The notes under the pieces were generated by a model. The model was given only the letters and a program-made list of their open reading frames with translations. It ran no database searches and was not told the origin of the DNA. Positions 43,422-64,000 of a DNA stretch of 64,000 nt are shown piece after piece. Position numbers and translations under genes: made by a program. This DNA is from Karstenula rhodostoma CBS 690.94 (taxonomy: Eukaryota > Ascomycota > Dothideomycetes > Pleosporales > Didymosphaeriaceae): positions 180,256 to 244,255 of the forward strand of contig MU001509.1 of the NCBI GenBank assembly GCA_010093485.1. Reading direction: 5' to 3'. Numbering within the stretch: position 1 is the stretch's first letter; every line of letters begins with the position of its first letter.

Positions 43422-46400
43422 ATGCGCCAGTTTTCCACTGTCTCGTACTCGCCCTGGGCGAATCCCTACTCCACAGGACCCAATGCCGGTAAGAACGTCT
43501 ATGCAACACCAGCCGCACAGCAGCCAGTAGTTCGCCGTATATTGCTCCCACCCGCCCCCACATTCTACCATCCGGGCGTCGAACAGGTCGTTGGAGAAGA
43601 GAGCGATGACGATGATTCCGAAGAGGGTATGTTGTGGTGTTTAGAGCACGTCTTTTGACCCACTGACAGTACGAAGTTCAATCCGATGTACCCGTGGATA
43701 ACGCCTTGGTAGAGGCTCCAGAACCACCGCCACCCACCGCGCCCGAGCCGACACCTGCGCCAGAGCCACCGAGTGAAGCTGTGCCAGAGAACGTCCCGGG
43801 GGATCAACCAGCAGAGCAGCCACCGCCTTCCGACCCGCCAGATGACCCAGTACTTGAGCCAAGTACAGATGATGCGGCCGCACAACCAGAGCCGCTAGAA
43901 GCATCACCCCCTTCTGCGGAAGATGATGTCGGTGGAGCGGCCGGACCAGACGATGTCAAGGACGAACCGCCTGGGGAAGACGCGGTCGCTGCGACGGCAA
44001 CAGAGGGCGAGGACACGACACCGTCTGCTCCGGCGGAAACCCCCGTGCCTGTTGTAGACGAGCCTAGCCCTATCGACGATCCGATAGACGTACCTGCCGA
44101 TGATGTCTCGCCCCTACCACCTTCCGAGCCTGCGCCTGCCGCCCCAGAAGAGGCCACGACGTTCCAGGAACCCGAACAGGTCGCTCTAGTTCCTCCCATT
44201 GACACAGCCCAAGAGCCTGTTGAGAAGAGTGGTGAGTGCGAGCCGGCTGCTCAAGAGCCCCCGATGTCCCCAACTACAAAGTCTGTTCATTTCTCCCCTG
44301 ACGTTAAAGACCCAGACGCCGCTAGCATTGGTAGCAAGAAGAAAGGGATCGCCAAGAAGGTCGGCAAAGGCAAGGCCACCGGTTTTGTGCGTCTCAGAGA
44401 CCCTATCCCAGTCCGACCAGCGTCGCCAAAGGAGGAGAGGAAGCCTGCCAAAGACGACAAGAAGAAGGCTGTCAAGGACACCAAGAAAAAGGACAAGCCA
44501 TCGAGTGCCAAGGAGCCTGTGGAAAAGGAGCCCGCGCTGTCCACGTCATCGAAGAAGAAGCCCAGCAAACCAGACGAGCGAAAGAAGAAGAAGCACGACG
44601 ACAAGGATAAGAAGTCAAAGGACAGGAAGACTAGGAAGGGGAGCGATGCTTCTCACACCGAAGATGATGCCGCAGTCGTCGACGATGAAAAGCTTGACGG
44701 CTCCGTGACCGATTCGGTCGAAACAGCGCCCTCTGGCGACCCTCAACAAGCAGAAGCTAACACTGATCGAAATACCGATCCACCCACCGAAGACCAGCGG
44801 GAGGATAGCACCGATGTTGTTGAGCAGAGCGCGCCGGAAGCAAGCCCACCAGACGAAAACGGCCAATCTGCAGAGCAAACTCCAGTAGAGGAGGGTGCAG
44901 TAGAAGAAGCTACTACTCATCCACCCACCGAAGACCAACATGAGGATAGCACCGATATCCTTGAGCAGAGCGCGCCGGAAGCAAGCCCACCAAGCCCACC
45001 AGATGAAAACGGCCAACCTGCAGAGGAGAGCGAGCCTACGGTGGAGGATGCGCTCATAGACCAGGCTGTTGCTGAGAGTGTAGCTGCTGAGGATACCCAG
45101 GCTCCAGCAACAAATACTGCAGAAGACAACGAAAGCTCAAATAAGGGTGCGACATCAGACGACCAGCCCGACAGCCTACTCGATACTGCACCTTCGGATA
45201 TAGTGCAGCCCGAAGAGACCCAGCTCGACCAGCCCAACAGCCTACGCGATGCCGAAGAAAACGGCCAACCTGCAGAGCAAACTCCAGTAGAGGAGGCAGT
45301 AGAGGAGGTTGCACCTGTAGCTGAGAGTGTAGCTGCGGAGGATACCCAGGCTCCAGCAACGGATGCTACAGAGGACACCCAGCCCGCAGAGGATACCCAG
45401 GCTCCAGCAATAGATATTGCAGAGGATACCCAGGCTCCAGCAACAGATGCTGCAGATACCGAGGCTCCAGTAACAGATACTACTGAGGATACCCAGGCTC
45501 CAGCAACAGATGCTACTGAGGATACCCAGGCATCAGCAACAGACGCTACAAAAGACAACGAAAGCTCAAATAAGGGTGCAACACCAGACGACCAGCCCGA
45601 CAGCTTACTCGATGCCGCACCTTCGGATATAGTGCCGCCCGAAGAGAGTCAGCTCGATGCCGACGCACCTTCGGAATCATGTCCTGAAGAAGACACCCTT
45701 GCAGGAGAGCTGCCTAGAGACAACGCTGCCTCAGAGAATCAACCCGCAGAGGACCAGTCTGGGACAACTCCGCCTGAAGGGCCCGAGCCAGAACAAAGCC
45801 GAAACAACGAGATCGAACCCGGAGATAGCCCGCCTGAAGTAAATCCCGGCTCGGGGGAGGCCAATGAGGAAGGAGACGATACGAATGAAGAGGCTAATGC
45901 AGAAGTGGAGCCAGTCCCTCCTGTCCAAGCGACAGATACAGGCAATGTCCTGCCAGACGACATGCAAGTCAACCCGGGGCCAGACACGCTTGAACCCGAA
46001 CCAGAGTCACCGAGCGACACGCCAATTGAGGCCGCAGTTGAAGCTCCAAAGACAGATGAAGAGCCCATTGATGACGTGACAGAGCATCCGGACGATGATG
46101 CATCGACAAATCAACCAAGCCAAGCCGGAAATGATGAGTCACAGAATGAGACTCCCGCAACAGTCGAGAATGAAAGCGTTAACCCAGCGGCTATTGAGAA
46201 CACCGACACCCTGAGTTCCGACAGGAACGACCATCCTGAAAACAGTCATGTCATCGACGCCGAGACGACTGCGGAGCAACTTGCGTCTGAGAACACCCAG
46301 GCAGTAGGTTCTCCACCTACAACTACGATACCGGCACATGAGAACGACAGCGTTGCGGAGCCTGGGATTAATGAAGACCCGGTAATTGTAACAGAGCATG

Positions 46401-49400
46401 ATGGCGAGGAAAACCCTATCAGCGAAAGTGTCGCTAGCCCAAACGACGATTCATCCGAACCTTGCAGTGAGAGCGATGCGGTGTCGGAGAGCGAAATACA
46501 AGACGAGCCTACGGTACAGAGCGAGGCCGGATCAAATTGTGCTCTCGTCGAAGACAGCGTGCCAAACCCCCTCGATGTTGCTATAGTCGAGAGTGTCATG
46601 AAGGCGCAGTCCGTGACATCAAGCGAAAACGAGGAGGGTAAAGATACGGATACTCCATCAAGTATACCCAAGCTGGACCAAGGCGAACCGTCGAAGGAGA
46701 ATGATCAGCAAGATTCTAGTGGCGCGACTACTCTTGCCTGCGATGCCGATGGCGGCAAAGAGGAATGTGTCTTGGAGACTTGTGAAATCGAAACTGGAAG
46801 TGAGGACAACATTGTGCACGCTGATGCCGAAGACCATCTCTTGCAGGCAAACTCGCCTAAAAGTATCGAATCCAACGACGCGGCCGATTCTGGGAATGTC
46901 ACAACGCTTGAGGCTGAGACTTCAGAGAGTGAAGCTATTGTGGCCGCATCAAGGAGCGGGACGCCAATCCAAATGCCACTTGGCAACGCCGGATCAGACA
47001 ATCTCAACGTCGGGAACAATGATCCCGATGCGCCGCCGGTGGCGACCAGCGACACACCCGCCACCGAAGATACAACAATTTCTCATCTGCCAGATGAGAG
47101 CGAACAGGAGGCACAAGTTTCTGGCGATGGCCCCGTTGACAATGGTACGACAGACGCTAGTGAGCTTGACAATCCTGGTGAGGTGCTGGGGCTGGAAGGA
47201 AATAAGGCAAATGACAACACTTGCGAAGGCCAGGAAATAAATGATTACAACCCCGAGGAGCATGCTGGACACCCTGATGAAAATTCCGATGAAGACAAAG
47301 ATGCCATTGCAATTGTTGCGGATGCGGCCGGATCGGATCCTCAGAGCGACGACAGCGCAAATGACCCCGTTGACGCTCAGGTCGATCAAGGCGATCATGG
47401 GAACGACGGCAATGGCGTAGAGGAGACGACTAGTACTACAATTTCTGGCAGCGAGAGCGAACCCCCAGCCACCGAAAATGAGACTGCAGTTGCCGTCAAC
47501 GTGGAGCCTGTTGAGCCCATTGCGGACTCCAGTCATGATCCGAATGCTGATTCATCTGTAGCTGACGAGGAAGAGGATAGCGCCGTTGTTGCCGACCTGC
47601 AAATCCCGTCCGACGCGCCTACTAATAATGATCCGGCGCAGCAGGCTTCAAACACCTCAAGCTCAGACGATGAACCCGACCAGGTGCATGCAGCGTCTGA
47701 ACTCTCTACCGTTGGCAGCATGGACGACGTCGTTGATGAGCCGGCGGACGGCGATGCGGAACGCAGTCATCAAAACTCGGATACCGAAGCAGAAGCACAA
47801 CCTGAAGTACCTGCCCCAGCGACTCCAGACGTTGTCAGCGCTGAGACAAACAACGATGCGGAAACTGATGCGACCGACGAGCAGGACCCAAAGGCCAGCG
47901 CTGAGCCTCTAATTGATCTTGTTACGGTCAGTGAGGATACGACTTCGCAAGAGCCTCTGCCTGAGGACTTGCCAGAGAATATAGGTAAGAAAAAATTTCT
48001 GTTACACATTTGCTTGTTCTAAGATTCGTCCTTGAACTATGTCCAGGCTTAGTTAACCATGCGCTAGTTGTTGAAATCGAGAGTCCGATCTCAATCGAAC
48101 CACAAGCTGACCCAAAAGCTACATTGGACGTCAATGAAACTATCCCGACAAGTCCTACACCGGATACAGAAGAGCGAGTGAGCGAGCCAAACGGCATCGA
48201 ACCCTCCCCACAGATTGAAGTAAATGAAGCTACGATGGGGGAGTCTCAGGCGTCCGTTCCGGACCAGGACTCTCAAGCTGAGACTGAAGCGAGCCAAATT
48301 GAAGTAGCTGCACAGACCGAAGAGGCCCCGGCGCTAGAAGAAGCGGTGATGGAGGAGGGACCGGTTCTGCAAACTGCGGAGGATGTGGTGGCCGAGCCAG
48401 TGCCTCAAGACGCAATACCTGAGCCTACGACCCAGCCTGAAGTCGAAGAAGTCAATAGTGAGAGTGCCCCCGAGCCAGTGCCTCAAGACGCAACACCTGA
48501 GCCTACGGCCCAGCCTGATACCGAAGAAGTCAGTAATGAGAGTACCTCCGAGCCTACGACTCAGCTTGAAGTCGTCGAAGAAGTCAGTAGTGAGAGTACC
48601 CCCGAGCCAGTGCCTCAAGACGCAATACCTGAGCCTACGACCCAGCCTGAAGTCGAAGAAGTCAGTAGTGAGAGTACCCCCGAGCCAGTGCCTCAAGACG
48701 CACCTGAGCCTACGACCCAGCCTGAAGCCGAAGAAGTCAGTAGTGAGAGTACCCCCGATCCAGATGTGATTGAGGAAAGTGAGATGGCTTCGACCCAAGA
48801 ATCTAGTCAAGAATTGGAAGGAGCTTGTGTTGCTGGGGATCAAGAGACTTCCGCCGAAGCCGGCGTCACATTCGAGCAGGCATCTCCTTCTCCAGATGCT
48901 ACTGCCGAGCCGCCACAAAGCGAAGTCGAAGCAGCAGCCATTGAGCAGAGTGATGCCGTAGCGGCAGGTACTGATGGGGTTGATGCGCAAGAGGAACCTT
49001 CGAGTGGACGCGAAGATGAACAAAATGAAGCCAATCCTGAAAATTCCGGAACCGATGATGCACCAGAAACTTCAGTGCCAACAAACCAGCCACCTGTCGA
49101 GCAGCCCGGATCGAACGAACCAGAGATAAGCCCCGTAGCTGCACACCCAATCGACACCGGATCACAGGATTGTGCTGCCGAGGAAGCTGCACAGCCCGTT
49201 GAAGCGGAGGAAAGCACAGAGCGTGTTGGTTCCGATGATACTGCCCAGGAGCCACTGCCAGAGATGACTGCACCGCTAGTTGAAGAGACCACTGAAGAGC
49301 CTTCTAACGAAGACCCTGTCGGGGTTGAAGAAAATCAATCGCCACAAGAAGCACCTGTCAACTCAGATCAACCGGAGGTCGAGGACGACAGCAAAGCTGA

Positions 49401-51639
49401 TGCTGATGCATCTTCTCAGGCAGGGGCTGCGGAATCCGTCGATCAGCCTCAAGAGGCCACACGAAACGAATCCGAAAATGCTTCACACACTCTACTCGAC
49501 GAGATGGATGAGGTGCAACCGATCACACCCCCCGTAGAACTTGAAGAAACGTCTACGGAGGTGCCTATGGAGGATGTTGGAGTCTCTCATGAACAGAAGG
49601 AAGCTGAGGAACCGGGCACTGAAGGACCAGACCTTGGGTCCTTGGGAACAGAGCAAGCTCAAGAGCCTGTCCCAAGTCAGGTCATGGAACCGGAGCCTGA
49701 ACCGGAGCCGGAGCTACAGCAGGAGTCCAACATTGTTGCCCCTGAAGTTGGCGAGGAAGCACTTGTTGAACAAATGCAAGACCCTGCAACGCAGCCCGTT
49801 ATTGAAGAGCCTCTCCAGGTCGAGCCCGTGGATGATGTTGCAGCCGCCCATGAACCCTTGGAGCAGCATGGGGAAGCGGAGGAGCCTGAAAGCTCTCGAG
49901 AAGCAGTTCCGTCCACAACGAAAGAAACCCTTGATCCTGCTGGTCTTCCCGACGATAAACAGCCACGAACACCGCCGAATGAGTCAGCATTGGTTGACGA
50001 GCCCACCGCCGACACAACGCCGAGAGAGAAACACCGACGTCGACACTCCCAAGCCCACCGCGACAGCAAACACTCACATCGTCGACACGAGAGCAATGCG
50101 AGCACCAGTGAGCGGCCCTCATTGAACCCCATGGCTTTGTTAGCTGCTGCAAAGCTCGCTGGATCAGCCAAGAACAAACGAAGGGATAGCCTAACGGACC
50201 GTGAGTATGGCAGACACAAGGACAGATTGCGAGAGGCCGAAAAAACGAGCAGCAGCAGCAAGGAAAGATCACACCGCGAACACAAATCACACAGACACCA
50301 CCGCGACAAGGGTGACGACAAGGAAAGCAAGCGTCGCACTCTCGAGGAGGTTGAAGCCGAAGCTGAGCGAAAGCAGCGTCGTGAAGCCCGACGTGCAGAG
50401 AAAGGAAGGAGAGCCCAGGAGGAGGCGGCTAGAGAGAGAAAAGAAGAAGAGGAGCAGAGACGGAAGCATCGTGAGGAGCGCCGTGCAAGACAAGAGCGAA
50501 CACGCAGAGAAGAGGAAGGACGGCTTGCGAGAGAGGCTGGAGAAAGGCATGCAAGGGAAGAGGAAGAGAGACGAAGAAGAGATGAGAAGCGAAAGCAAAG
50601 GCACGAGGCTGGGCAAGAAAGTAGGCGCTCAGAACGCGAGAAGGCCGACCACGAAGAGGAAGAGAGAAGGTTGCGCCGTAAACGTCGCGCTCAGCTCGAA
50701 CGGGGGAAGTTGGCCGCGAAAGAAGCTGGAGCCTACGATGCCGAACCTCGCGACGCGGCTCGTCGTGCTGCCGAAGAAGAGGACGACCCGGTTCCAGAAT
50801 CCCCCGTCACTCCCCGAGAATCCACACGGAAACGCACAAGCGACCGCCGCCGAGACGCCCCGCCTCCGCGCGGAAACAGTCTATTTGGCGGGATTTCGCT
50901 CTTTGGCCGATCGAAAACGGACCCGGTCGTGCCTACTGCCAAGTCAATCAAGCCAGTAAATCGCGTCCGTACGGATCCTGCAGAGGCACCATCAAGCCCT
51001 GTAGAGACTTTGCGGAAGGAAAAAGAGGGGCGAACGAGTAGCCAGCATTCTTCCAACGAGAGCCGAGAAAGGGCAGAGCGGCCACACCGCAGCCGTCGCC
51101 ATTCACACACACATCACCGACGGTTCAACTCGGCGGAAGAGGAAGCTGAATACCGTGCGCGAAAGGAGGAACGGCGCAAGGCCAAAGAACACGAGCTCGA
51201 AATGTCCGGTGCTCGCGATGGAGGCGTCTCGTTGACGGCGACTTTCGACGACGTCCCGCCACCCGATCCGGCAGAGGTAGCTGTCGCTCACGAACCTCAA
51301 GAAGACACGGAAGAGCGTCCGCAGTCCATGCCTCTCGACGACGCCGCTGGCATCACGTCATCGTCTTCCAGCGAACGCCGTGAGCGCCGCCGAGCTGACC
51401 GCCACGTTTCCATCGTCGAGCACGAGCCCGAGCGTCCGAAGAGTCGGCGCATCTCGGTCACGGAGAAAGAGAGACCGGCAAGCAGACGCACGGAGAGCGA
51501 TAGACCGCGCACCAGGGGCGGCGGCGAGGAGCGCCCGAGGCCGCGCCGCAGCGAGACGGAACGGGGCAGTCGGAGTAAGAAGAAAGACGATAATGGGATC
51601 AAGGGCTTCTTTGGCGGGCTGAAGAGGATCGTGGCTTAG
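43422..51639 (+). CDS. Giant disordered, Glu/Pro-rich protein, function unknown
   Basis: Three exons (43422-43626, 43677-47984, 48047-51639) join in phase to 2701 residues. Exon 1 starts MRQFSTVSYSPWANPYSTG and ends in an acidic DDDDSEE block. Then follow a Pro/Glu/Ala-rich part and a Lys-rich part (about 280-410). A repeat zone of AEDTQAPATDAT type lies near 540-695 and a 26-residue repeat (EPTTQPEVEEVSSE...) near 1620-1740. A highly charged Arg/Glu coiled-coil-like stretch lies near 2160-2400, followed by a Ser/Arg-rich end closing with GIKGFFGGLKRIV. No enzyme domain was seen. The size, acidity and charged tail suggest a scaffold or tether; septal-pore proteins such as leashin are comparable in style, but I cannot show homology. 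Confidence 0.8.
45090..45560 (+). repeat. Coding minisatellite in the giant gene (AEDTQAPATDAT type)
   Basis: About eight near-copies of GATACCCAGGCTCCAGCAAC with varying linkers of 10-30 bases. The frame is always kept, so the copies vary the number of Asp-Thr-Gln-Ala-Pro-Ala units in the protein. Confidence 0.85.
48394..48760 (+). repeat. 78-base coding tandem repeat in the giant gene
   Basis: GAGCCAGTGCCTCAAGACGC recurs at 48394, 48472, 48604 and 48682. Spacing is 78 bases except one 132-base interval that carries an extra 54-base partial unit. Each unit encodes 26 residues. Third-position differences are few, which points to recent expansion or homogenisation. Confidence 0.85.
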
Positions 51640-54686: not shown

Positions 54687-55864
54687 TCACGCTCTCGAGA
54701 TCTCGGATATCTGCGTTTGTGTTCCTGGCGGTCCACCCACAACACCAGCTTCGAGATCCTTCTCCCTCTCCGTCCTGCTTCCATCTTTGCTCTCTCCAAT
54801 GCTAACTATATACCTCTGCCAAATATCCGCAAATTCAGATTCGCTTGCAGTCATGTCGTCATTGCGCAACGGATCAGCTTTCTTTCGCGTCAAGATGCCA
54901 CGGTAGCATGGTAGCGCGCAGACAATGACGGCGCCGCTCGCTTGCAGAAAGCACCATAGGACGTTTTGATCTGGAAATCTTGCGAGATCCACATCGATAC
55001 TGTACACGGTGCGGAGAATCGTGAGCACCATGTTGACAGCCACTAGGAGGAAGATGAAGGCGAGCTCGAGCTTTTGAGCCGTGCGCATTAGGAGCGGCCT
55101 CAGCATCGCCAGGGGAAGTACGGCTACTGGTCGGTTGTTAGTTTGGAGTTCCAGAGCTGCGGGAAAGATTCGGCTCACGGAGAAGATCTCCTATGAGATC
55201 CAGAGTGCACCAAGCCGATAACATTGGAATGACCATGGCTGGGGCATTGTCGTGGCATTGAGCTGGAGACTGGTAAGCACAATGCCACACGCGTGTCAGT
55301 TGAAGACCTACGCTGAGCATCCGGAAAGTATTTAGGGTTGCCGCACAGGAAGAACGACCACATGAAGGTTATGGCAAAGCTTGTGGGGATGTAGGCGGTT
55401 GTCACCGCCCATGCGATCCGGAACTTTGTCGAAAAGGCAAAAATGTGCCAATACAGCGCCAAGAAGCTCGCCTTCGCCGCGTAGATTACGCACCAGAAGA
55501 GCAGGGCATTTGCAGCATTGTACCTGGCATTTCTTGTTTCGTCGCTGTGGATGACGTCGTCTTCTTTGATCAGGCCCATGGCATATAGCTGTTTGGTGTA
55601 ATCTGCTGGCCCGTACACCTGATAGGTGGCGGTGAAGGCCAACAGAAAAGCCATGGCCAGTCCGTTGAAGAAGTCATCCCAAGCAATGCGTTGGCGACGG
55701 TGCCAGTGGATGGCAAAACGACCAAGCGTGACCAGAAGTGCGATTACGGTCAGCGACCAAGCAACTGTCTACGCCCCCCACAATCAGATCAGCGACCGAA
55801 GCCAGATAAGGGGTAATAAGAGGCGCCGACTTACAATAACCTGATGGAGCTCAAGGGTATGCAT
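54687..55864 (-). CDS. Seven-helix membrane protein, fungal rhodopsin-like (PTH11-related) family
   Basis: Four exons (55864-55835, 55768-55312, 55262-55179, 55126-54687) give 336 residues in frame. The start MHTLELHQV continues into a first helix TVAWSLTVIALLVTLGRFAIHW, then the family motif RRQRIAWDDFFNGLAMAF. Further helices include ANALLFWCVIYAAKASFLALYW, WAVTTAYIPTSFAITFMW, DLIGDLLLAVLPLAMLRPLL and LELAFIFLLVAVNMVLTILRTVY. The R-x-x-x-x-D-D block and the P-L-x-M-L-x-x-L segment are typical of the fungal rhodopsin-like domain. A charged cytosolic tail follows. Ligand and pathway are unknown; some relatives act in surface or host sensing. It is a neighbour of the UstYa-family gene, same strand, 870 bases away. 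Confidence 0.85.
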
Positions 55865-56735: not shown

Positions 56736-57672
56736 TCATTCCTCGACCGAAGCATCGAATGGAGGCTCCACAAAATCGACCACTTTCCCACCTTCCGGAC
56801 GCCGTATGCCCTCTTCAGGAAGACTCTCCATCTCCACCCCATATTTTGCCGAAACCTCCAGAAGCTTGTTGTAATTACGGCACTTGTGCTGGACGTTGAA
56901 GTTCGGATGGGGGTTGTAGTGGTTTTTCAACCAGCTGTACGTGATGAGGCCCGGATCGGCATCACATACAAGCTTCTGGCGAAGCATGTCCACGCAGTGA
57001 TCGACGTGTTCTAGCCACTCGTCGCGGTGCTCTCTTGCAAACTCGGCTTCCTCGGTGTAGTATTGAGGGTAGTGTGTCTTCCAAAGGTTGTGCAAGCAAT
57101 GGATATAGTGGAAGCCCTCGAATGCCGCAAGCCGGCCCTTTCCTAGGCTAGATGGCGCCTTTACTGCATGCTTTGAGGCGTTGATGGTTTGGAAGACGTC
57201 CTCGGAAATGACCATCATGCGTTCTGCTGTGCGGTCACTGCGATGTTCTCTTGATTGGCGTCGCGATCAACCTACCAGGTACGAGATCTGCCCAAAGTTT
57301 GTCGACCTTCTCCGAAGGCGGGCCTTTGAATGGGGATGAATCGCGACTGAGGGAACCATCAAACCTTACTGTCAGGTCCCATGGATGTTCGCCAAGTAGC
57401 TCGTCTGTGATAGATGTTAATGACAGTCCTTCTTCCTGGAATCCTGGAATACCTTTAACAGAGGAGCATGTGCTTGCTGGCTTCACAAGTAGCCCTGCTG
57501 AGATTGATAGAACGAAAAGCACCAGATGCAGGCACCATGGCAGCCACCTCACTGCGCTTGGACGCACCACTGCTGCATCCGAAGTGATCCCCGACTCTGA
57601 TGCCGAATCGATTAAATACAATGAAGTCTCAACATCATACTCTTTGGAAGGTAAGGTTGTGTATGTTGCCAT
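56736..57672 (-). CDS. UstYa-family (DUF3328) protein, likely RiPP cyclisation/oxidation factor
   Basis: Two exons, 57672-57276 and 57223-56736, joined in phase 1 (DLVPGERMMVISEDV), 294 residues. Start MATYTTLPSKEYDV; an upstream in-frame Met at 57774 is less typical. One transmembrane helix lies at about 43-63 (WLPWCLHLVLFVLSISAGLLV without its last residues), giving a type II membrane protein. The luminal part carries two HxxHC motifs, HYIHC (171-175) and HVDHC (205-209), the hallmark of UstYa/DUF3328 proteins. UstYa and UstYb are needed for oxidative macrocyclisation in ustiloxin biosynthesis. The divergent neighbour is a repeat precursor with Kex2 sites, so the pair looks like a small RiPP locus. 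The substrate link is inferred. Confidence 0.9.
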
Positions 57673-58570
57673 TGCTCGTGTCCCGTCTGTTCTGGGTGAC
57701 TTGTGAAGGAATGGAGCAAAAGCAGGTGGTAATGCTCGATACACGGACCACATCCGGACCGTTTGAAGATCCACCCAAATCCTATTCGGCTAACGGTAAC
57801 GCAATCTTGGATCAATCCTCAGGTCCACGTTTCCCTGCTTTTGCGGGGCCAGCTCGATCATATAATCGACGAGGTAACGCCGCTGCACCAATGCTTACCG
57901 TTCCATCCAGCTCGCCGTCCTCCACGACTCGTACAAACACGGCGCCTCGGTCTCAGATACGAAATTGCCGTTTACGAGCGCTTACACCCAAAAGAAGAGC
58001 CCCCACGTTCCGGCCACCGATCAGCTCACCATCCGAGATAGCAGTAGAGGGCAAGCAGCATAGTGGCGGACGTTTGCGCCTGGACCATCTGTTGGATCAA
58101 TATTGGCCGGTAAAACGCGGACCTGCCGATCAATCGTTAGGATGGCGCTTAGGGAAGCCACTTGCCGGATTGGTACGGCCGACATGGTGCGGAAGCCGTC
58201 AAGGCATAATCCAATGTTCACTGTTGAGATGATACCGGCGCTTCCATGTGCCAAACGCGTGGCATAAAGCTGGAGATCTGCCCACCTTTACTTACGGAGT
58301 ATCACATATCTCTAGTCCCAGTGTCTGTTGAGAGCAATCTCCCATCGATTTCAGCAACCAGCTACTCCGCTATCAGAAGTTGCAAGACCAGAGAACTTTC
58401 CCAGTTGAACTCAGCAGCTACCTGTCTACATCCAAGAACTTGCCGAGCCGATCGATTACCATACAGCAACCGAAGGTAGCAGTGACCATCGAAAAACCCA
58501 AGCTCCACGCTATTCCAGTATAACCCTCAGATAAACCGCCTCCCCCACTTAATCCCGCCCTCCCGCCAAA
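57673..58570. promoter_or_regulatory. Shared divergent promoter region of the UstYa-family and precursor genes
   Basis: 898 bases separate the two start codons, consistent with joint control. A TATA-like AGTATAAC lies about 50 bases before the precursor ATG. ORFs inside (57600-58232) overlap exon 1 of the UstYa-family gene and look random. No factor site was assigned. Confidence 0.45.
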
Positions 58571-58923
58571 ATGAAGCTCGCCATCATCCTTTCCGCGCTC
58601 CTACCCACCGCCCTGGCACTCCCCTTGACCATTCCGGGTAAGCACTGACCTCCAATCCACTCCTACCCACCTCGCGACTGACAGTCTCGACAGCCGCCGC
58701 TAAGACGGAAGTTACAACTCGCGACTCCACCGCAACCCCAAACAGTCTCTTCGCGGTCCGCTACAGGAAAGACCTCATCAACGACCCCCAGAAGCGCGCG
58801 GAAGACGTTAACAGCATCTTTGCTGTGCGCTATAGCAAGGATGTCGTGCAGGATTCTGACAAGCGCGCGGAAAATGTGGGATTCCCTGTGAAGTACAGCA
58901 ACGATTTGATCGACGACGAGTAG
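58571..58923 (+). CDS. Candidate RiPP precursor: secreted repeat peptide with Kex2 sites
   Basis: Two exons, 58571-58637 and 58685-58923, with a 47-base GTAAGC...GACAG intron; 101 residues in frame. A second acceptor 9 bases on (58694) would drop three residues. Signal peptide MKLAIILSALLPTALA, then a spacer, then three related segments: NSLFAVRYRKDLINDPQKR (42-60), NSIFAVRYSKDVVQDSDKR (65-83, preceded by AEDV) and AENVGFPVKYSNDLIDDE (84-101). Two Lys-Arg sites (59-60, 82-83) would release them by Kex2. The Phe-x-Val-Arg/Lys-Tyr core with its Tyr is constant. This matches ustiloxin/epichloecyclin-type precursors (Kex2-processed repeat proteins). There is no Cys or Trp, against an alpha-factor-type pheromone. 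Confidence 0.8.
58741..58878 (+). repeat. 69-base tandem repeat in the precursor gene
   Basis: The AAC-AGT/AGC core recurs at 58741 and 58810 (69 bases, 23 codons). A third, shorter unit starting GCGGAAAATG at 58867 has lost two codons. Protein is better conserved than codons in places (CGC-TAC against CGC-TAT), hinting at selection on the peptide. Confidence 0.75.
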
Positions 58924-60141: not shown

Positions 60142-61782
60142 CTATATCTTCTCCATCGTAAAGCTCTTTACCGTGACGGACCCGCCTAGCGCCTTCGTCG
60201 CGAAGTTGAAAGCCGCGAACCTGAACCCCGTGAAGAACTGCCAGTCGTTAATCATGGGGAACGCGCTGCCCAGCTGTCTGAATTTCCTCCCGTCGGTGCT
60301 GTACCAGAAGGTCGTGGTGCGCTGCGTCGACGAGCCGAACGCGGGCGTGATGTCGGCCTGGACCTTGAACCACACCCCAGCGGTCCCCGCAGCGAGCGTC
60401 GTGCTCGCGGCAACGGTGCCGGTGGCACTGGTGTTCCACGCATTATTCTGGTCGAGCTTGAGGTTGTTGACGTACACGAGCTTGTTGGTCGTGCCCTCGC
60501 GGTGGATGCCGATGTATGCCATATTGTCACGGAAGAGTGCGGCGCCGGCTCGGTCGCCGTCGGCCATCTTGCTGATGTCCAGACGAAAGGTACCCGCGGA
60601 CTTGGGTCCGATGATGCGGTGTGTGAGGGTGTTCCGAGCCGTGTAGAGGTCACCTGTCACGGTTGCGGTGGATAGTTGCAGTCCACCAGTCGAGCCGCCG
60701 AGGAGCTTGAATTTGGAAGTGTCGGGGTTGTGGTTCCATTCCCATTCGTGGCTGAGCGAAGTGCCTCGGAAGGTGTCTGTTCCAGTAACTGGTGGGACGG
60801 TTTTGCTGGTTGAAACGGGGATGGGATATGTTTTTCCCCATGCGCCGCTGCTGTCTTTGACGAGCAAGGGCCAACCGTCCGAGGACCAGGTGATGGGTGC
60901 TGCCACGGGGATGCGACCGCCTGGGAAAGAGTCCATGAATGCGACGTAGTACCAGTTGTTGTCCTTCGTACTAACGATTCCACCTTGATGTGAAAAGCCT
61001 GCACTTGACAAAGGACCGGCAATACTCTGCACAAGGACTTTCATTTCGTAGGGACCCCAGGGACTCTTGCTCCTGAGTACCCACTCGTCGGACGCGGGCT
61101 TGGTGACGAATATGTAATAGTATCCGTTGATCTTGTACATGCGGGAGCCCTCAATGTACGTGTTGCCGGCGTACACCTGCTGCGACTTGACCTCTGCAGT
61201 GCCGTCCTTGTTGAGCTGAGCGACCATGATGTTTGTGCTGCCATAGGCAACATAGATTGTGTCGTCATCATCGACCAGCAGACCACAGTCGTAGTAGCAC
61301 TTGTTGACTGAAGCAGTAGACTTCCAGTTCCAACCCGAGACCTCGCCGTTGTTGCTCTTTGCTCCGCCACCGCTCGCGGTCCAAACATAGGACTTACCGT
61401 CGACGCATCCAATCCACATAAATGTGTCGGTGGAGTCGCGATAGCGGAGGCTGCTGGCCCAGATGCCCTTGACGTAGGCGCGGTCGGCCGCGCTGTTGAG
61501 GTTGTACTTGGTGCCGAAGTTCAGCGTGGGCACGCTGTGACTGACTGGCGTCCAATTGACGAGATCGTAGGACTTGAGCACAGGTGCGCCGGGGGAGAAG
61601 GCAAAAGTTGACGAAGTGTAGTAGAAGACTTCGCCCACGCGAATGACCTCGAGGTCAGGATAGTCTTCCCAAAGTATTGGGTTTGTAAAAGTAGTTGCTC
61701 TAGCGTCGAGATTGTCCACGGCCAGCGGACCGGCGTGGACTAGAGCGAGCAATGCAGAGCACGCAACTGCTGAGAAACGCAT
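60142..61782 (-). CDS. Secreted GH43 glycosidase (beta-xylosidase / arabinofuranosidase type)
   Basis: Single exon, 546 residues. Signal peptide MRFSAVACSALLALVHA. The GH43 five-blade propeller starts with TNPILWEDYPDLEVIRVG (the general-base Asp is in this block), then FAFSPGAPVLKSYDLVNW. The general acid Glu is likely in YIEGSRMYKINGYYYIF, and the pKa-setting Asp probably lies in the DRAYVKGIWASSLRY to CGLLVDDDDTIYVAYG region. The last 200 residues (GTDTFRGTSLSHEWEWNHNPD..., ending KSFTMEKI) form the beta-sandwich found at the C-terminus of many GH43 enzymes. It would act on arabinoxylan side chains or xylo-oligomers outside the cell; exact substrate not readable. It is probably unrelated to the adjacent peptide locus. 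Confidence 0.9.
   Translation of the reverse strand: MRFSAVACSALLALVHAGPLAVDNLDARATTFTNPILWEDYPDLEVIRVGEVFYYTSSTFAFSPGAPVLKSYDLVNWTPVSHSVPTLNFGTKYNLNSAADRAYVKGIWASSLRYRDSTDTFMWIGCVDGKSYVWTASGGGAKSNNGEVSGWNWKSTASVNKCYYDCGLLVDDDDTIYVAYGSTNIMVAQLNKDGTAEVKSQQVYAGNTYIEGSRMYKINGYYYIFVTKPASDEWVLRSKSPWGPYEMKVLVQSIAGPLSSAGFSHQGGIVSTKDNNWYYVAFMDSFPGGRIPVAAPITWSSDGWPLLVKDSSGAWGKTYPIPVSTSKTVPPVTGTDTFRGTSLSHEWEWNHNPDTSKFKLLGGSTGGLQLSTATVTGDLYTARNTLTHRIIGPKSAGTFRLDISKMADGDRAGAALFRDNMAYIGIHREGTTNKLVYVNNLKLDQNNAWNTSATGTVAASTTLAAGTAGVWFKVQADITPAFGSSTQRTTTFWYSTDGRKFRQLGSAFPMINDWQFFTGFRFAAFNFATKALGGSVTVKSFTMEKI

Positions 61783-64000
<2,218 letters not shown>

What the first reader, a model, noticed from the sequence alone, without database searches (positions are those of the whole stretch)
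56736..58923. A compact two-gene RiPP locus: UstYa-family protein facing an unrecognised Kex2-processed repeat precursor
Seen: a DUF3328-type protein with two intact HxxHC motifs and one TM helix, divergent from a 101-residue secreted precursor with three related segments and two Lys-Arg sites. Known: in ustiloxin, phomopsin, asperipin and epichloecyclin biosynthesis, UstYa-family proteins modify Kex2-released core peptides, usually at a Tyr. Inferred: the Phe-Ala-Val-Arg-Tyr / Phe-Pro-Val-Lys-Tyr cores are the substrate here. I do not recognise these cores from described dikaritins. The precursor is split by an intron and short, so ORF-based annotation misses it. No second UstYa, peptidase, methyltransferase or transporter is nearby, so the pathway would be minimal or scattered.
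Basis: partly seen in the sequence, partly recalled or inferred. Interest (0 to 1): 0.92.

Follow-up and report, generated by a model that had tools for sequence, protein, structure and literature searches.

The report
Two-gene fungal cyclic-peptide locus
A fungus carries, back to back, a gene for a small secreted protein built of near-identical short peptides and a gene for an oxidase of a family that ties such peptides into rings; it looks like a new member of a known kind of system, and the same genome holds at least ten more such pairs.

Summary
A UstYa-family (PF11807, DUF3328) gene with one predicted TM helix and two HxxHC motifs (minus, 56736-57672) lies divergent from a two-exon precursor gene (plus, 58571-58923) with three related segments and two Lys-Arg sites. 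Relatives suggest a 56-nt intron (58638-58693), not 47, hence 98 rather than 101 residues. Seven relatives of the precursor were found, including annotated proteins of Kalmusia sp. and Didymosphaeria variabile. Cut at every KR, the eight proteins give 32 pieces; 30 hold one Phe-x-x-x-Tyr-x-x-Asp motif each. In the window, cores 1 and 2 differ by four synonymous and no amino-acid-changing codons. In the same genome, 11 of 28 fetched UstYa regions hold a Kex2-repeat precursor within 3 kb of a UstYa match, 10 of 11 divergent from one, with unrelated cores, so the pairing is unlikely to be coincidence. Best reading: a minimal dikaritin-type RiPP pair, in which Kex2 releases FxVxY peptides and the UstYa enzyme oxidatively cross-links them, most like asperipin-2a. 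Chemistry, expression and the gene pair in relatives are not shown. New member of a known kind; I found no description of this core family, in limited searches.

The parts
57276..57672 (-). UstYa-family gene, exon 1 (N-terminus; predicted TM helix about 57484-57540)
57224..57275 (-). UstYa-family gene, intron (52 nt; a 49-nt alternative ends at 57227)
   Evidence: the 52-nt version matches the length of P0003 (LVPQRMMV)
56736..57223 (-). UstYa-family gene, exon 2 with stop codon; most of the PF11807 domain
57096..57110 (-). first HxxHC motif (HYIHC, residues 171-175)
   Evidence: nearly invariant in 22 rows
56994..57008 (-). second HxxHC motif (HVDHC, residues 205-209)
   Evidence: invariant or nearly so in 22 rows
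58084..58185 (-). intergenic stretch whose translation matches the start of the P. brasiliense UstYa gene model P0008 (22 of 34 identical): conserved DNA in the divergent promoter, probably not coding (inference)
58571..58637 (+). precursor gene, exon 1 (signal-peptide-like N-terminus)
58638..58693 (+). precursor intron, 56 nt preferred (47-nt alternative ends at 58684)
   Evidence: relatives
58694..58923 (+). precursor gene, exon 2 with three repeat segments and stop codon
58750..58773 (+). core motif 1, FAVRYRKD
58792..58797 (+). Kex2-type Lys-Arg site 1
58819..58842 (+). core motif 2, FAVRYSKD
58861..58866 (+). Kex2-type Lys-Arg site 2
58882..58905 (+). core motif 3, FPVKYSND

Best explanation
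The locus is a minimal dikaritin-type RiPP pair. The small precursor enters the secretory pathway by its signal peptide, Kex2 cuts after the two Lys-Arg sites, and the membrane-anchored UstYa-family oxidase, facing the same lumen, acts on the released peptides, each of which carries one F-x-[VT]-x-Y-x-x-D motif. The most likely reaction is an oxidative cross-link from the Tyr phenol oxygen to the beta-carbon of Phe (as in asperipin-2a) or, second, of the Val/Thr two residues before the Tyr. Both genes are driven from one divergent promoter. Shown here: gene structures, repeats, KR sites, motif conservation, and the frequent pairing in the genome. Inferred: secretion, Kex2 cleavage, shared promoter, UstYa acting on this precursor, and the bond formed (I put about 0.5 on a Tyr-O to Phe or Val cross-link, given that UstYa acts at all).
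For: PF11807 at E 3.1e-37. Two HxxHC motifs in the window's protein. Of 21 UstYa homologues checked (P0003-P0023), 17 show both motifs by exact pattern and four (P0008, P0019, P0022, P0023) show one; in the alignment of all 22 rows the motif positions are invariant or at least 90% conserved. Precursor family of 8: 30 of 32 KR-delimited pieces hold exactly one F...Y..D; the two that lack it are N-terminal pieces. Cores 1 and 2: 4 synonymous, 0 non-synonymous changes in 5 codons, against 4 synonymous and 7 non-synonymous in the 15 codons that follow. In the same genome 11 of 28 fetched UstYa regions hold a precursor, each starting within 3 kb of a UstYa match, 10 of 11 divergent from one. Literature: 1758 (22%) of 7878 KEP genes lie near DUF3328 genes, most often in the next position, and 65.6% of their repeats contain Tyr against 38.2% otherwise (PMC7329392, passages). 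Asperipin-2a has a single UstYa homologue, AprY (PMC6514808, passages), and UstY enzymes are described as using a dicopper site to make its Tyr-O to Phe-Cbeta ether (PMC12186524, passages of the introduction).
Against: No transcript or mass-spectrometry evidence. The gene pair was not seen in any relative: precursors and UstYa relatives came from separate records, and the fungi named for UstYa are not those named for the precursor (only cluster representatives are named). No transporter, reductase, tyrosinase or peptidase family was recognised in the 20 of 75 window frames scanned. 17 of 28 UstYa regions showed no precursor. The core spacing F-x-x-x-Y differs from that of asperipin-2a (FYYTGY). 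The predicted structure of a UstYa orthologue is low-confidence (mean pLDDT 58.4), and no solved structure matches.
Confidence: 0.82

Rival explanations
1. The precursor is a linear secreted peptide precursor (a signal or pheromone-like peptide) and the UstYa gene is a chance neighbour.
For: Most KEP genes (78% of 7878, PMC7329392, passages) have no DUF3328 gene nearby. The genome has 59 exon-level UstYa matches, about 43 genes by my grouping by eye, so some chance adjacency is possible. The gene pair was not directly seen in relatives.
Against: A precursor stands beside UstYa at 10 further loci of this genome, head-to-head at 9 of them. With the detector's limit at 50, none was found in 130,871 bases that are either more than 3 kb from a UstYa frame in the fetched regions or in the window outside L013, against 11 in 164,855 bases near one (0.0016 by simple proportion, 0.0029 for ten). 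F and Y are fixed in the core. In the cited survey no yeast alpha-factor gene and only three fungal pheromone genes were accompanied by DUF3328 genes.
Confidence: 0.12
2. The pair is a real RiPP unit, but the UstYa enzyme performs another oxidation (desaturation, hydroxylation, or a C-C or C-N link) rather than a Tyr-O ether. This is a sub-case of the best explanation at the level of the bond formed.
For: UstYa-family proteins are reported as essential for desaturation of residues in phomopsin biosynthesis (Sogahata 2021, as told in PMC10512285, passages) and to hydroxylate and chlorinate in the cyclochlorotine cluster (PMC12048977, passages). Val/Thr at the middle position (27 of 30 units) could be a desaturation site.
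Against: Phe and Tyr stand in 30 of 32 KR pieces (the count finds units by F...Y and is circular for those two positions). The single-UstYa dikaritin described in the papers seen, asperipin-2a, has Tyr ethers.
Confidence: 0.3
3. The locus is a decaying relic that no longer makes a product: only two KR sites and three units are left, while a relative has five.
For: Fewest pieces with the motif (3, as P0002 and P0030; P0026 has 5). Second weakest repeat score among the 11 precursors of the genome (52; L026 51, the others 61-92).
Against: Intact frame and intron signals, synonymous-only change between cores 1 and 2, and an intact UstYa frame with both motifs.
Confidence: 0.04

Closest known systems
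Asperipin-2a (aprA/aprY/aprT/aprR, Aspergillus flavus)
   Same: Kex2-repeat precursor, a single UstYa homologue, no tyrosinase, aromatic core with a Phe at the start and a Tyr at the end (FYYTGY)
   Different: Here the core is F-x-[VT]-x-Y followed by x-x-D; no transporter or reductase was recognised in the 20 of 75 window frames scanned; the precursor and enzyme sequences were not compared directly
Ustiloxin B / phomopsin A (dikaritins)
   Same: Secreted precursor, KR-separated repeats with Tyr, UstYa-family proteins
   Different: Those clusters have two or five UstYa genes, a tyrosinase and further tailoring genes, and Tyr-x-Ile cores; here there is one UstYa in the window and no recognised tailoring gene
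KEPs with neighbouring DUF3328 genes (Umemura 2020 survey, PMC7329392)
   Same: The class to which this pair belongs: KEP gene with DUF3328 in the next position
Lichen RiPP clan R2 (single ustY gene; PMC12048977, passages)
   Same: Single UstYa gene without the other dikaritin tailoring enzymes
   Different: No repeated precursor was found there, and many GNAT genes are present; here the repeated precursor stands beside the UstYa gene

Membership tests
Dikaritin-type RiPP locus | precursor with signal peptide | tested here: met
   hydrophobic residues 3-21, Kyte-Doolittle mean 2.2; no signal-peptide program was run
Dikaritin-type RiPP locus | repeated cores separated by Lys-Arg | tested here: met
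   three segments, two KR; repeat score 81, maximum of 5000 shuffles 47
Dikaritin-type RiPP locus | UstYa (PF11807/DUF3328) gene near the precursor | tested here: met
   E 3.1e-37; start codons 0.9 kb apart, divergent
Dikaritin-type RiPP locus | two HxxHC motifs in the UstYa protein | tested here: met
Dikaritin-type RiPP locus | aromatic (Tyr) residue in the cores | tested here: met
   3 of 3 window segments; 30 of 32 KR pieces in the family
Dikaritin-type RiPP locus (original five-gene definition, Ding et al., as told in PMC12048977) | tyrosinase, methyltransferase, several DUF3328 genes, peptidase or transporter in the cluster | tested here: not met
   none among the 20 of 75 window frames of 150 residues or more that were scanned with Pfam, and one UstYa match in the window; PMC12048977 says that the later definition rests on the DUF3328 protein
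Dikaritin-type RiPP locus | side-chain cross-linked product | not testable with these tools
   needs LC-MS/MS
Asperipin-2a family | precursor homologous to AprA with FYYTGY core | not tested
   the AprA sequence was not fetched; the core differs by eye
Fungal alpha-pheromone precursor | Pfam pheromone domain | tested here: not met
   no Pfam family at E <= 1; the Trp- or Cys-bearing core of many of them (recalled) is absent, no C or W in the precursor

The most novel reading that the evidence does not exclude
The genome runs a repertoire of at least eleven Kex2-repeat precursors each paired with a UstYa oxidase, ten of them divergent from it, with unrelated cores. At least five of these (the window's, L019, L026, L027, L029) would be self-contained two-gene RiPP cassettes set among genes of other business, in which one copper oxidase alone turns a linear secreted peptide into a cross-linked one, here F-x-V-x-Y, without any other dedicated gene.
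Probability: 0.4. Interest if true: 0.62.

Novelty: new member of a known kind. Interest (0 to 1): 0.45.

Why it matters
One review (PMC10512285, passages) counted only five reported dikaritins by 2022, although 22% of 7878 KEP genes sit near UstYa genes. A two-gene pair is the smallest unit in which the match of precursor and enzyme can be tested directly. With eleven precursor-UstYa pairs of unrelated cores in one genome, this species would be a compact test bed for how UstYa enzymes choose their substrate and which bond they form.

Tried and rejected
Phage collection search of the locus: no match, as expected for fungal DNA. PDB by sequence and by fold: nothing at E <= 1 by sequence and nothing at E <= 0.001 by fold. 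The AlphaFold2 model of the Bimuria protein P0004 is too weak (mean pLDDT 58.4) to use beyond noting that both HxxHC motifs fall in neighbouring predicted helices (157-172 and 188-205). Its alignment A5 used 18 of the 21 homologues; I left out P0008, P0019 and P0023, three of the four that show only one exact motif, so A5's invariant motifs are partly a result of that choice; alignment A4 keeps all. Precursor paralogues in its own genome: none besides itself at E <= 10.

Literature: for FAVRY, FPVRY, FAVSY, FPVKY as whole words 133 papers hold at least one; the 20 listed match FAVRY only and none concerns fungal RiPPs by title or abstract start; the other 113 were not seen. Didymosphaeriaceae with RiPP: 2 papers, neither about RiPPs by abstract start. 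So I found no description of these cores in print, within those two searches only.

A tree of own-genome UstYa C-terminal fragments: 24 fragments from 22 of 28 regions plus 7 relatives; regions L012, L019, L023, L025, L028 and L030 gave no usable fragment. The window protein groups with its relatives from other fungi and has no close paralogue; proteins beside precursors do not form one clade. It rests on short fragments and carries little weight.

Could the precursor-beside-UstYa pattern be an artefact of the detector? Of 3480 residue-shuffled frames one reached 28 and none 40, while the 11 accepted precursors score 51 or more. One further frame (L020, score 35, a short proline- and glutamine-rich stretch) was not accepted. 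Two regions (L023, L028) gave no UstYa frame with my own profile, though one search lists weak matches there.

Full report
What is there. On the minus strand, 57672-56736 encodes a 294-residue protein in two exons. It matches Pfam UstYa (PF11807) at E = 3.1e-37, has one strongly hydrophobic stretch (residues 45-63) and two HxxHC motifs, HYIHC and HVDHC. On the plus strand, 0.9 kb away start to start, 58571-58923 encodes a small protein in two exons with a hydrophobic N-terminus and three related segments, NSLFAVRYRKDLINDPQKR, AEDVNSIFAVRYSKDVVQDSDKR and AENVGFPVKYSNDLIDDE. The repeat is beyond chance: self-repeat score of the last 77 residues 81, maximum of 5000 shuffles 47.

Correction of the intron. 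Introns of 47, 56 and 74 nt keep the frame. With the 56-nt one the protein reads LPLTIP-AAAKTEVTTRD and in this stretch aligns without a gap to P0027 of Didymosphaeria variabile (LPFTIP-AAAKAEV) and to P0001 (FPFTIP-ISSKAEVTTRD), and with a one-residue gap to P0026. A CTGAC branch-point-like site (consensus recalled) stands at 58678-58682, its A 12 nt before that acceptor's end. P0028 and P0029 read on through PGK at the same codon, as unspliced DNA would. I therefore prefer a 98-residue product; the searches used the 101-residue version.

The precursor is conserved. A single-sequence search found two relatives. A profile of the three found seven in all: P0001 and P0002 (both in the profile), P0026 (Kalmusia sp. 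IMI 367209), P0027 (Didymosphaeria variabile), P0028, P0029 and P0030; the five new ones have E from 1.8e-33 to 3.6e-9. Cutting all eight proteins after every KR, with no reference to the core, gives 32 pieces; 30 contain exactly one F-x-x-x-Y-x-x-D, and the two that do not are N-terminal pieces. V or T stands at the third position in 27 of 30 units (where units were found by F...Y, so that call's Phe and Tyr counts are circular). Between the window's cores 1 and 2, 4 of 5 codons differ and all four changes are synonymous; in the 15 codons after them 4 changes are synonymous and 7 not. Core 3 differs from cores 1 and 2 at two residues, A to P and R to K. This is a comparison of five codons, so it is suggestive, not a test.

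The enzyme is conserved. The homologue search gave 23 proteins, the nearest from Paraphaeosphaeria sporulosa (85% over 71% of the query) and Bimuria novae-zelandiae (65% over 100%), which places the genome in or near Didymosphaeriaceae (inference). Of 21 of these, 17 show both HxxHC motifs by exact pattern and four show one. In the alignment of all 22 rows the motif positions are invariant or at least 90% conserved. The Paraconiothyrium brasiliense gene model P0008 begins with a stretch that matches, 22 of 34 residues, the minus-strand translation of window 58084-58185. That stretch lies in the middle of the divergent promoter, so part of the intergenic region is kept beside UstYa in that species. 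Whether the precursor follows it there I could not see.

The pairing is frequent in this genome. The genome (44.3 Mb) has 59 exon-level UstYa matches, which I group by eye into about 43 genes. A detector for similar segments beside KR sites found 174 frames with two or more KR in these regions and the window; 14 score 28 or more and 13 score 50 or more. The 13 are 11 distinct precursors: the window's is counted twice (window and L013) and L019 shows in two frames. Of 3480 shuffled frames one reached 28 and none 40. The 11 precursor frames lie 0.65-2.8 kb from a UstYa match, and 10 of 11 are divergent from one; L026 is in tandem. The cores are unrelated by eye, for example TEFAPWYRATNILPASDEKR, ITYVDKR and DSDDVWLWKKR. 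No precursor was found in the 76,772 fetched bases more than 3 kb from a UstYa frame, nor in the 54,099 window bases outside L013, against 11 in 164,855 bases near one (0.0016 by simple proportion, 0.0029 for ten). The far bases were not chosen at random, so this is a weak control. 17 of the 28 regions showed no precursor; the detector misses single-core precursors and those not cut at KR, and two of these regions (L023, L028) gave no UstYa frame with my profile.

Surroundings. Of the window's 75 frames of 150 residues or more, the 20 scanned gave a fungal rhodopsin-domain membrane protein (54690-55768), a GH43 enzyme (60145-61857), a dehydroquinate synthase domain (62516-63433), a gamma-tubulin complex protein, an Aft1-domain protein and an F-box-like match just below its cut-off: nothing of a RiPP cluster. 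Around the ten other pairs, 20 of the 56 frames of 190 residues or more listed were scanned. They gave Het-C and a mitochondrial carrier (L019), a rhomboid and a sub-threshold sugar-transporter match (L026), an acyl-CoA dehydrogenase (L027), an aldonolactone oxidase (L029), a TPP enzyme and an MFS transporter (L015), an MFS transporter (L016), an RTA1-like protein (L011), an aminotransferase (L012) and a rhodopsin-domain protein (L014). No tyrosinase, methyltransferase or P450 appeared among those frames; shorter exons were not scanned. L011 and L012 adjoin and hold three UstYa matches and two precursors, so not every pair is an isolated one.

How it most likely works. By analogy with asperipin-2a, where one UstYa homologue (AprY) is essential and a sequential cyclisation by it was proposed (PMC6514808, passages; PMC12186524, introduction passages, which describes a dicopper site and a Tyr-O to Phe-Cbeta ether), the peptides released by Kex2 would be oxidised between the fixed Tyr and the fixed Phe, or the Val/Thr between them. 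The x-x-D and the tail before KR would serve enzyme recognition and be trimmed later. None of these steps is shown here.

What is known. KEPs with a neighbouring DUF3328 gene are a described class: 1758 of 7878, most often in the next position (PMC7329392, passages). The finding is a new member of that class, with a core family that I did not find in print (searches only; the survey's supplements were not open). The less usual features are the minimal two-gene form and the number of such pairs in one genome.

Verdict. Observation confirmed with corrections; interpretation supported; chemistry open. Interest 0.45.

Noticed in passing
Own genome, L011-L031: C18:127048, C18:136600, C18:993350, C5:63460, C5:75190, C5:482755, C1:222121, C1:1724685, C12:772062, C14:664046: Ten further Kex2-repeat precursors beside UstYa matches, nine divergent from one, with unrelated cores; by eye nine of ten bear Trp or Tyr, the DLSGLKR repeats at L014 do not.
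   Followed up: partly
window 58084-58185: Stretch of the divergent promoter conserved in Paraconiothyrium brasiliense, read there as the start of the UstYa gene model; perhaps a regulatory element and a gene-model error.
   Followed up: partly
G000:C21:65457-73273 (not fetched) and G000:C4:1537590-1541272 (L032): Further small groups of UstYa matches in the same genome. The C4 group was fetched in L032 and showed no precursor; the C21 group was not seen.
   Followed up: partly
window 43667-51636: Two very long adjoining frames (1451 and 1216 residues) with no Pfam match, perhaps one large protein of unknown family.
   Followed up: no
window 54690-55768: Fungal rhodopsin-domain gene about 1 kb from the UstYa gene; a similar gene lies near the pair of L014. 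May be coincidence.
   Followed up: no
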